A stretch of 64,000 bases of DNA from Rhizophagus irregularis (lineage: Eukaryota; Glomeromycota; Glomeromycetes; Glomerales; Glomeraceae): positions 1,240,001 to 1,304,000 of the forward strand of contig NC_089458.1 of the NCBI RefSeq assembly GCF_026210795.1, written 5' to 3'. The notes beneath the pieces are model-generated. The model was not told where the DNA came from. It was given only the letters and a program-made list of their open reading frames with translations, and made no database searches. Shown here in pieces: positions 1,113-2,743 of this stretch. Position 1 is the first letter of the stretch. Every line of letters begins with the position of its first letter. The position numbers were made by a program, and so were the translations under genes.

Positions 1113-2743
1113 ATGGCTACAAAAATTGGAATTAATGGGTAATTCTTACATGAATCATCTTAAACGACATCATTTGAATCATAATCACGTGTGGCGAATT
1201 TTTTTTTTTTTTTAATGTATAGATTTGGAAGAATTGGACGTGTAGTTCTCCGTATTGCTCATGATTATCCTGATATCGAAGTCGTAGCTATCAATGATCC
1301 ATTCATTGACCTTGACTATATGGTAAAGTTATCAACCTTGTGGCGCAGTCGCATAATTAAGAAAATAATCAATATATTCTTCGTATTAGGCTTATTTGTT
1401 TAAGTACGATTCTACATATGGACGATTTAAAGGGAATGTTGAAGTGAAAAATGGAGTATTGATTATTAATGGAAAAGAAATTAATGTGTTTGCCAAGAAA
1501 AATCCAGAAGAAATTCCTTGGAATCAAGTTGGGGTCAATATTGTTGTGGAATCTAGTGGCGCTTTTACTACCGCTGAAAAATCTTCTGCGCATCTTAAAG
1601 GTTAGTATAATAAGAGAAAGAAGATAAATAGATTAAATACATTTTTTGTTGACGGATATTTTGAAAAAAAAAAATATTTTTTTTATAGGGGTTTGTGTTG
1701 TCTTATACATAATTTACTTAATCATTCCAAGGAGAAGAATAGATTCGATTATTAACTTTTAAATTTCTTTTGTTTCAATAATTGAACAGGGTGCTGAAAA
1801 GGTAATAAAAATTAATGTATTCCGCGATTATTATTATATGATATTTTGCATTTTAATTCTTTTCTTCTAATATGTATAGGTTGTTATAACATCGCCAGCA
1901 GATTCTCCAATGTTTGTAGTCGGAGTTAATACAGATTTATATAAACCAGAATATAAAATTATTTCTAATGCATCATGTACAACAAACTGTTTATCACCAT
2001 TGGCAAAAGTAATTCATGAAAACTTTGGTATTATAGAAGGATTAATGACGACTGTTCATGCTACTACAGCAACACAAAAAACTGTTGATGGACCTTCTGG
2101 AAAAGATTGGAGACGCGGTAGGGGTGCTTCACAAAATATCATACCAAGTTCAACTGGAGCAGCTAAAGCCGTTGGTAGGATCATTCCTGAATTAAATAAA
2201 AAATTAACTGGATTGGCTTTTAGAGTACCACCTACTATTGTTTCTGTTTTAGACCTAACTGTTAGATTGGAAAAAGAAACTAATTATGAAGAAATTAAAA
2301 AAGTTATTAAACATGCTTCAGAAAATGAATTAAAAGGTATACTTGGTTATACCGAAGATGAAGTCGTTTCTTCAGATTTTATTGGTAATTCTAATTCTTG
2401 TATTTTTGATGCTAATGCTGGTAAGTATTTCGCTTGGAAGGAAGAAAATTATAATAATTTCTTAACTAATACATTTCTTCTATTTTGATTTTGTTTTATT
2501 TTTTTTAGGAATTCAATTGAGTCCTACTTTCGTTAAACTTGTTGCTTGGTATGATAATGAATGTAAGTTAATTTTTCTTTTAAAAAAAGGAAATTCAATT
2601 CATATGAATATTATTTTATTTTATTACTAAAAGAATTCATATGAATATATATTAATGGTTTTTTTTTCATAATAGATGGATACTCTACACGTGTTCTCGA
2701 TTTAATTACTTATATTATAAAAGCAGATAACGCCGCTTATTAA
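1113..2743 (+). CDS. GPD: Glyceraldehyde-3-phosphate dehydrogenase
   Basis: Glycolytic enzyme that oxidises glyceraldehyde-3-phosphate with NAD and phosphate in the cytosol. Exons: 1113-1138, 1223-1322, 1390-1600, 1689-1690, 1790-1801, 1880-2420, 2509-2562, 2676-2743, giving 337 aa, the normal family length. The N-terminal Rossmann motif (INGFGRIGR) is formed across the first intron. The catalytic motif SNASCTTNC places the nucleophile at Cys150 and its partner at His177 ([10 protein letters not shown]). The end shows WYDNEYGYS. Exon 3 ends in phase 1 and exon 5a (1790-1801) needs phase 0; a two-base exon GG at 1689-1690, with AG before it and GT after it, restores the conserved HLKGGA. The usual RVPTPDVSV reads RVPPTIVSV, so this may be a divergent paralogue. 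A TATA box is 61 bases upstream. Identity is certain; the microexon is inferred from phase and conservation. Confidence 0.95.

What the first reader, a model, noticed from the sequence alone, without database searches (positions are those of the whole stretch)
1601..1789. Two-nucleotide microexon in the GAPDH gene
Exon 3 ends at 1600 in phase 1 (last codon started by G) while the exon 1790-1801 must be read in phase 0, so a single GT-AG intron cannot join them. Inside the interval is AG|GG|GT at 1687-1692: an acceptor, the two bases GG, and a GTTTGT donor like that used by the kinase gene at 40081. Including GG gives exactly the family-conserved HLKGGA. Introns of 88 and 99 nt match the others in the gene. 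Exons this short are extremely rare and challenge standard exon-definition models; recursive splicing could also explain it.
Basis: partly seen in the sequence, partly recalled or inferred. Interest (0 to 1): 0.75.

Follow-up and report, generated by a model that had tools for sequence, protein, structure and literature searches.

The report
Two-base exon in fungal GAPDH genes
A core sugar-burning gene of an arbuscular mycorrhizal fungus appears to contain an exon of only two DNA letters, needed to keep the gene readable and found at the same place in the fungus's other copy of the gene; exons this small are very rare, and the deposited gene models that were seen are mostly wrong at this spot.

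Summary
The window is Rhizophagus irregularis. In its GAPDH gene, exon 3 ends in phase 1 (1600) and the next exon (1790-1801) must be read in phase 0. No single GT-AG or GC-AG intron (40 nt or more) gives an open frame. All 3 in-frame two-intron solutions use the acceptor at 1687-1688, and only the 2-nt exon GG (1689-1690) restores HLKGGA. The strongest evidence is new: the only other GAPDH gene found in the genome has the identical arrangement, with a phase-1 exon end, AG|GG|GTTTGT between introns of 80 and 104 nt, and a 12-nt exon. The introns are otherwise diverged, and 0 of 20,000 shuffle pairs had AGGGGT in both. The paralogue spliced this way equals a deposited R. irregularis protein exactly. 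Of 16 named Glomeromycotina rows in three capped protein lists, 14 are altered at this junction, against 1 of 205 other rows. An intronless contig's protein, 96% identical to the paralogue's, reads HLKGGAKK. Most likely two ordinary introns are removed one after the other. No RNA reads were available, and cDNA alone cannot exclude one T...A-bounded intron. New member of a known kind (1-nt exons exist).

The parts
1113..1138 (+). GAPDH exon 1 (26 nt, ATG at 1113)
   Evidence: same length in the C13 paralogue
1223..1322 (+). GAPDH exon 2 (100 nt)
   Evidence: same length in paralogue
1390..1600 (+). GAPDH exon 3 (211 nt), ends in phase 1 (...CAT CTT AAA G)
   Evidence: same length and phase in paralogue
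1601..1688 (+). intron 3 (88 nt), donor GTTAGT, acceptor TTTTTTTTATAG (the best-scoring AG of the interval)
1689..1690 (+). 2-nt microexon GG (last two bases of the Gly113 codon)
1691..1789 (+). intron 4 (99 nt), weak donor GTTTGT (identical in the paralogue), acceptor TTGAACAG
1790..1801 (+). 12-nt microexon GGT GCT GAA AAG (GAEK), phase 0
   Evidence: 12-nt exon GGAGCTAAAAAA (GAKK) in paralogue
1880..2420 (+). GAPDH exon 6 (541 nt), catalytic SCTTNC region
2509..2562 (+). GAPDH exon 7 (54 nt)
   Evidence: same length in paralogue
2676..2743 (+). GAPDH exon 8 (68 nt), stop TAA

Best explanation
The GAPDH gene of Rhizophagus irregularis contains a frame-essential 2-nt exon (GG, 1689-1690) that supplies the last two bases of the first glycine codon of the conserved HLKGGA motif. 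It lies between two ordinary GT-AG introns of 88 and 99 nt. Two spliceosomes can hardly assemble at once across two bases, so I infer step-wise splicing by intron definition. The strong acceptor at 1688 is used first, joining AAAG to GG. The weak donor GTTTGT, whose upstream context AAG-GG is almost the same as before (TAG-GG), is used second. Skipping GG would give HLKGC* and a dead transcript. The exon predates the duplication that gave the two GAPDH genes, and so probably the split of Rhizophagus from Funneliformis. Shown: the frame need, the splice signals, the identical paralogue, and the exact match of the paralogue product to a deposited protein. Inferred: constitutive use, order of removal, age.
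For: Frame: 0 in-frame single-intron solutions, and only the 2-nt solution gives HLKGGA; HLKGC* without it. Paralogue on C13: same exon lengths 26/100/211/2/12, AG|GG|GTTTGT, introns 80 and 104. The intervals are otherwise diverged: the only shared stretches of 10 nt are AGGGGTTTGT and a T-rich run, and none is longer. 0 of 20,000 shuffle pairs have AGGGGT in both, 5 have AGGNGT in both. AGGGGTTTGTKK is not common: 37 copies in 146.7 Mb against 42 for the reversed control. The microexon AG is the best acceptor in both intervals and its GT the best donor inside both. The C13 product spliced with GG equals P0021 [Rhizophagus irregularis DAOM 1...] over 337 residues. 204 of 205 rows not named Glomeromycotina keep GGA, while 14 of 16 named Glomeromycotina rows do not. 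P0027 (337 aa on a 1063-base contig, 325 of 336 identical to P0021) and P0012 (324 of 336 identical to the garbled F. mosseae model P0074) read HLKGGAKK. The window-type orthologue P0003 reads HLKGGAEK.
Against: No RNA read of this gene across the junction was seen. The donor GGG|GTTTGT has the lowest score of all 18 donors in the two genes (3.9 in both; next 5.0), and the paralogue's intron-4 acceptor is also weak (0.4). Two deposited R. irregularis proteins (P0026, P0029) read HLKEGAKK, not HLKGGAKK. DNA of other Glomeromycotina could not be read, so conservation beyond the two paralogues rests on protein models. The same mRNA is compatible with one non-canonical T...A intron.
Confidence: 0.92

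Rival explanations
1. One non-canonical intron (1602-1788, starting with T and ending with A) is removed in a single step: one G is borrowed from the donor GT and one from the acceptor AG, giving the same mRNA AAAGGGGGTGCT.
For: Arithmetic on the sequence: AAAGG + GGGTGCT equals the microexon product. The same arithmetic works for the paralogue. cDNA cannot tell the two apart.
Against: Breaks the GT-AG rule at both ends although a good GT and AG sit one base away; does not explain why AG|GG|GTTTGT, the best internal acceptor and donor, is kept in both diverged paralogue introns.
Confidence: 0.03
2. The microexon is 8 nt (GGGTTTGT) or 11 nt, spliced at a downstream GT, giving HLKGVCGAEK or HLKGVCVGAEK; the R. 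clarus model P0001 reads like the 8-nt form.
For: In frame in the window gene; P0001 [Rhizophagus clarus] reads HIKGVCGAEK.
Against: The donors score -4.3 and -4.8 against 3.9 for the 2-nt exon's donor; the paralogue has no GT at either place, so neither form is possible there (list of GT sites); it inserts residues into a motif kept by 204 of 205 other rows.
Confidence: 0.02
3. The gene is a pseudogene or the assembly has an indel, and there is no microexon.
For: A frame break is what an indel or decay would also give.
Against: The rest of the gene is intact, both Pfam domains are far over cut-off, the product is 94% identical to an R. clarus and 92% to a G. cerebriforme protein; the second locus has the same break at the same place.
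Confidence: 0.01
4. It is a fungal spliceosomal twin intron (stwintron): an internal intron splits a splice signal of an external intron and nothing is kept.
For: Two introns at one site in a fungus, needing consecutive excision, as for stwintrons (PMC5639578, passages read).
Against: Keeping no bases gives the frame-broken HLKGC*; neither GT nor AG is split.
Confidence: 0.01

Closest known systems
1-nt exon of CYP621A cytochrome P450 genes in Fusarium (PMC12940212: passages and Discussion section read)
   Same: Fungus; phase-incompatible exons in a conserved motif; AG|G|GT in all the orthologues they describe; problem found by manual annotation; supplies a G inside a glycine codon.
   Different: One base, not two; supported there by reads of two species; a P450 gene in Fusarium, not a glycolytic gene in Glomeromycotina; here kept in two diverged paralogues.
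1-nt exons of plant APC11 and VPS55 (PMC4674806: first of three parts read; PMC8831610: passages)
   Same: Sub-codon exon essential for the frame, missing from annotations, conserved across species.
   Different: Plants; APC11 shown by cDNA and mutant reporter constructs; here no RNA experiment yet.
2-5-bp exons of Arabidopsis, Drosophila and human (Volfovsky et al. 2003, seen only as cited in PMC12940212)
   Same: Size class.
   Different: Not fungal; individual cases not examined here.
Stwintrons of ascomycete fungi (PMC5639578, passages)
   Same: Consecutive excision of two introns at one place by intron definition.
   Different: No exon bases are kept there (definition as I understand it from the passages); here GG is kept.
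Recursive splicing / RS-exons (PMC6224609, passages)
   Same: A 5' splice site acts at or next to the fresh exon-exon junction.
   Different: Cryptic RS-exons are removed without a trace; the site here lies 2 nt past the junction and leaves two bases, more like the 'cryptic microexons' of that paper.

Membership tests
ultra-short (<3 nt) constitutive microexon | Exon bases bounded by AG and GT with introns of normal length on both sides | tested here: met
   AG 1687-1688, GG, GT 1691-1692; introns 88 and 99 nt, the five others in the gene 67-113 nt
ultra-short (<3 nt) constitutive microexon | Inclusion needed for the reading frame and conserved protein motif | tested here: met
ultra-short (<3 nt) constitutive microexon | Conserved in homologous genes | tested here: met
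   identical in the C13 paralogue; other species only through protein models
ultra-short (<3 nt) constitutive microexon | Present in mature mRNA of this gene | tested here: inconclusive
   proteins of intronless contigs of relatives read HLKGGAKK, the paralogue product matches a deposited protein; no reads of this gene
ultra-short (<3 nt) constitutive microexon | Changing the exon bases changes the mRNA accordingly | not testable with these tools
   needs a minigene
stwintron | Internal intron splits a splice element; no exon bases kept | tested here: not met
   zero-base joining gives HLKGC*
recursive (ratchet) splicing | AG|GT juxtaposed, no bases kept | tested here: not met
   AG|GG|GT, two bases needed
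recursive (ratchet) splicing | Ordered, step-wise removal of the two introns | not testable with these tools
   inferred only from size and splice-site strengths
GAPDH (phosphorylating, type I) | N- and C-terminal Pfam domains and catalytic SCTTNC | tested here: met
   PF00044 136.4 bits, PF02800 227.9 bits; SCTTNC in the translation (its catalytic role is recalled)

The most novel reading that the evidence does not exclude
A 2-nt exon in the GAPDH genes has been kept across much of the Glomeromycotina since before the GAPDH duplication, with a fixed AG|GG|GTTTGT core. A strong acceptor joined to a selectively kept weak donor enforces 5'-to-3' two-step splicing, so a housekeeping enzyme depends on every transcript passing an obligatory two-step splicing intermediate.
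Probability: 0.6. Interest if true: 0.68.

Novelty: new member of a known kind. Interest (0 to 1): 0.6.

Why it matters
As far as my searches go, it would be the first 2-nt exon described in a fungus and the first ultra-short exon in a glycolytic gene and in mycorrhizal fungi. The listings show no such paper, but the library holds only open-licence PMC papers and some lists were cut (20 of 72, 15 of 104, 10 of 47, 15 of 417). [quoted passage not shown] It would also explain why GAPDH models of these fungi are so often wrong at one spot, and gives a simple signature (phase clash plus a conserved motif) for finding more such exons.

Tried and rejected
Single canonical or GC-AG intron: 0 solutions in the window gene; 10 in the paralogue, none giving HLKGGA. 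Other two-intron solutions: 2 of 3 in the window gene and 5 of 6 in the paralogue fail to give HLKGGA. 8- and 11-nt exons: weak donors, not possible in the paralogue. Stwintron and zero-nt ratchet: break the frame. Pseudogene or assembly error: same structure at two loci.

Rfam scan of window 1-4000 at gathering thresholds: 0 matches. snRNA check: all three U1 loci found carry ACTTACCTG at their start; for L009 I first searched the wrong strand and corrected it. Two of four U6 matches (L012, L013, both over cut-off) carry ACAGAGA; L014, below cut-off, does not on either strand; the fourth was not fetched. GGG|GTTTGT pairs at 5 of 9 positions with U1, against 6-7 for the four other donors compared; that its TGT fits U6 ACA is my own reading. 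Pattern AGGGGTTTGTKK is not enriched in the genome (37 against 42 control), so there is no sign of a general motif. The MAFFT alignment of the two intervals misplaced the exon ends and was not used for the argument. The G113E of P0026/P0029 could come from calling exon 5 two bases early (AG|GGAGCT), but I could not test this. PMC13149111 and PMC8042270 were only searched for a few terms. A PDB sequence search showed only that many GAPDH structures are close relatives.

Full report
What the window is. The window is G000:C30:1240001-1304000 of a 146,748,485-base genome in 32 contigs. Contig C13 is 5,085,394 bases long, exactly the scaffold N50 given for the 32-chromosome assembly of Rhizophagus irregularis DAOM197198 in PMC10234402 (passages read; total size there 146,773,001, so the totals differ slightly and I did not explain the difference). 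The C13 GAPDH product is identical to a deposited R. irregularis protein. I take the organism to be R. irregularis, an arbuscular mycorrhizal fungus.

The observation. The GAPDH gene at 1113-2743 has exons of 26, 100, 211, 2, 12, 541, 54 and 68 nt. The coordinates in the finding are right: exon 3 ends AAA G at 1600, AG is at 1687-1688, GG at 1689-1690, GTTTGT starts at 1691, and exon GGTGCTGAAAAG is 1790-1801. With GG the CDS is 1014 nt, 337 aa with no internal stop and HLKGGAEK at the joint; leaving GG out gives HLKGC*. Both GAPDH Pfam domains are far over cut-off.

No ordinary alternative. I listed the GT-AG and GC-AG single introns of at least 40 nt that join the two exons in frame without a stop: the window gene has 0. 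Two-intron GT-AG solutions: 3, all using the acceptor at 1688, with middle exons of 2, 8 and 11 nt; only the 2-nt one keeps the family motif. Among 205 protein rows not named as Glomeromycotina, 204 have GGA at this place; the exception is P0062. Those 205 include unnamed metagenome rows that may themselves be Glomeromycotina.

The independent test: the other GAPDH gene. Two family searches of the whole genome found GAPDH exons only on C30 (the window) and C13. The C13 gene (L004, minus strand) has exons 26, 100, 211, then AG|GG|GTTTGT with GG at 4152-4151, then a 12-nt exon, with introns of 80 and 104 nt around the GG. Its exon 3 also ends in phase 1. The products are 72% identical. The two intervals (189 and 186 nt) share two stretches of 10 nt, AGGGGTTTGT and TTTTTTTATA, and none longer. 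In 20,000 dinucleotide-preserving shuffle pairs, AGGGGT at least 50 nt from both ends occurred in 138 window and 5 paralogue shuffles and in both 0 times; AGGNGT in both, 5 times. In both intervals the microexon AG is the top-scoring acceptor and the microexon GT the top-scoring donor inside the interval, by weight matrices trained on the 14 other introns of the two genes. Against this, GGG|GTTTGT is the weakest of all 18 donors (3.9 in both genes; the 16 others 5.0-11.8), an in-exon GT at 1791 scores higher (6.5), and the paralogue's intron-4 acceptor is weak as well (0.4). The training set is small.

Protein-level evidence. The C13 gene spliced with its GG equals P0021 over all 337 residues. 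P0029 and P0026 differ from it by G113E, the microexon codon (P0026 has one further change). P0027, 337 aa on a contig of 1063 bases and so intronless (a transcript by inference), is 325 of 336 identical to P0021 and reads HLKGGAKK; P0012, on contigs of at most 1201 bases, is 324 of 336 identical to the F. mosseae model P0074, which is garbled at the joint, and reads HLKGGAKK. Of 16 named Glomeromycotina rows in the three lists of 120 (P0001, P0003, P0004, P0005, P0015, P0017, P0018, P0021, P0026, P0029, P0074, P0103, P0122, P0123, P0158, P0194), 2 (P0003, P0021) have GGA[KE]KV and 14 do not. Several errors are what a gene finder would do without a 2-nt exon: HLKAKK (P0017, P0123) is the paralogue's single-intron solution that starts 4 nt into the 12-nt exon, HLNAKK (P0018, P0194) looks like the same with another residue, and P0158 reads like the solution that runs through intron 4 from the microexon acceptor. 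P0001 (HIKGVCGAEK) is what an 8-nt exon GGGTTTGT would encode, suggesting that R. clarus has the same core; this is inference, as I could not read its DNA. The 16 are not independent: five are R. irregularis entries, and several species appear twice.

Age. In a tree of 31 proteins (the window product and 30 of the 193 rows fetched by then; 221 in the end), the window-type genes of R. irregularis, R. clarus, G. cerebriforme and F. caledonium form one clade (100/100), apart from the other Rhizophagus-type (99/96) and Funneliformis-type (100/99) genes. So the duplication precedes the split of Rhizophagus and Funneliformis, and an exon shared by both copies most likely does too. The order of the deeper forks is unresolved (55/84), the window-type clade has a long stem (0.35), and parallel gain or gene conversion is not excluded.

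Mechanism. Shown: the frame needs two more bases (modulo three), GG lies between well-formed introns of normal length, and the core is shared by two diverged introns. Inferred: the two introns are removed one after the other by intron definition, as reported for stwintrons in ascomycetes (PMC5639578, passages), intron 3 first because its acceptor is strong and the next donor weak. After that step the donor context is AAG-GG|GTTTGT in place of TAG-GG|GTTTGT, so the same donor can be used. The three U1 loci found and the two U6 loci over cut-off have canonical pairing regions; the weak donor pairs at 5 of 9 positions with U1, while its TGT fits U6 ACA (my reading).

Because the extra bases are GG, one intron from 1602 to 1788 (T...A) would give the same mRNA. 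Reads alone cannot exclude it; a GG-to-CC minigene or lariat data can. The AG|GG|GTTTGT core kept in both genes makes it very unlikely.

Relation to what is known. Ultra-short exons are a known kind: a 1-nt exon in Arabidopsis APC11 (PMC4674806, first of three parts read), conserved 1-nt exons in plant APC11 and VPS55 (PMC8831610, passages), and a 1-nt exon in Fusarium CYP621A, called by its authors the first for a fungal gene (PMC12940212, passages and Discussion). That paper cites 2-5-bp exons in Arabidopsis, Drosophila and human. I saw no paper on microexons in mycorrhizal fungi or on this exon in the listings (open-licence PMC only, some lists cut). Verdict: real on present evidence, a new member of a known kind, of high interest to splicing and annotation specialists.

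Noticed in passing
window 1790-1801: The exon after the microexon is itself only 12 nt (GAEK), so a 2-nt and a 12-nt exon lie in tandem between three introns of 88, 99 and 78 nt; the paralogue has the same pair.
   Followed up: yes
L004 4868-2854 (minus strand; C13 GAPDH gene): The paralogue has 11 introns against 7 in the window gene, including ones that leave exons of 25, 50 and 58 nt.
   Followed up: partly
window 3941-4500 and beyond: Open frame starting MADVADVNISKFVPTIKKILLDSDLNEITARDVRMKL... (read by eye), reminiscent of DEK-C/SWIB-type chromatin proteins (recalled resemblance, not searched).
   Followed up: no
window 39586-41400: Apparent protein-kinase gene with several short introns, one seemingly using donor GTTTGT at 40081 (read by eye).
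   Followed up: partly
P0001, P0004, P0005, P0015, P0017, P0018, P0026, P0029, P0074, P0103, P0122, P0123, P0158, P0194: Deposited Glomeromycotina GAPDH proteins are altered at the place of the 2-nt exon; the public records deserve a check.
   Followed up: yes
G000:C9:2522867-2523032, C17:1332978-1333144, C3:3034659-3034823: Three U1 snRNA loci, all with ACTTACCTG but with different sequence just after it in at least one (L010 against L009 and L011).
   Followed up: partly
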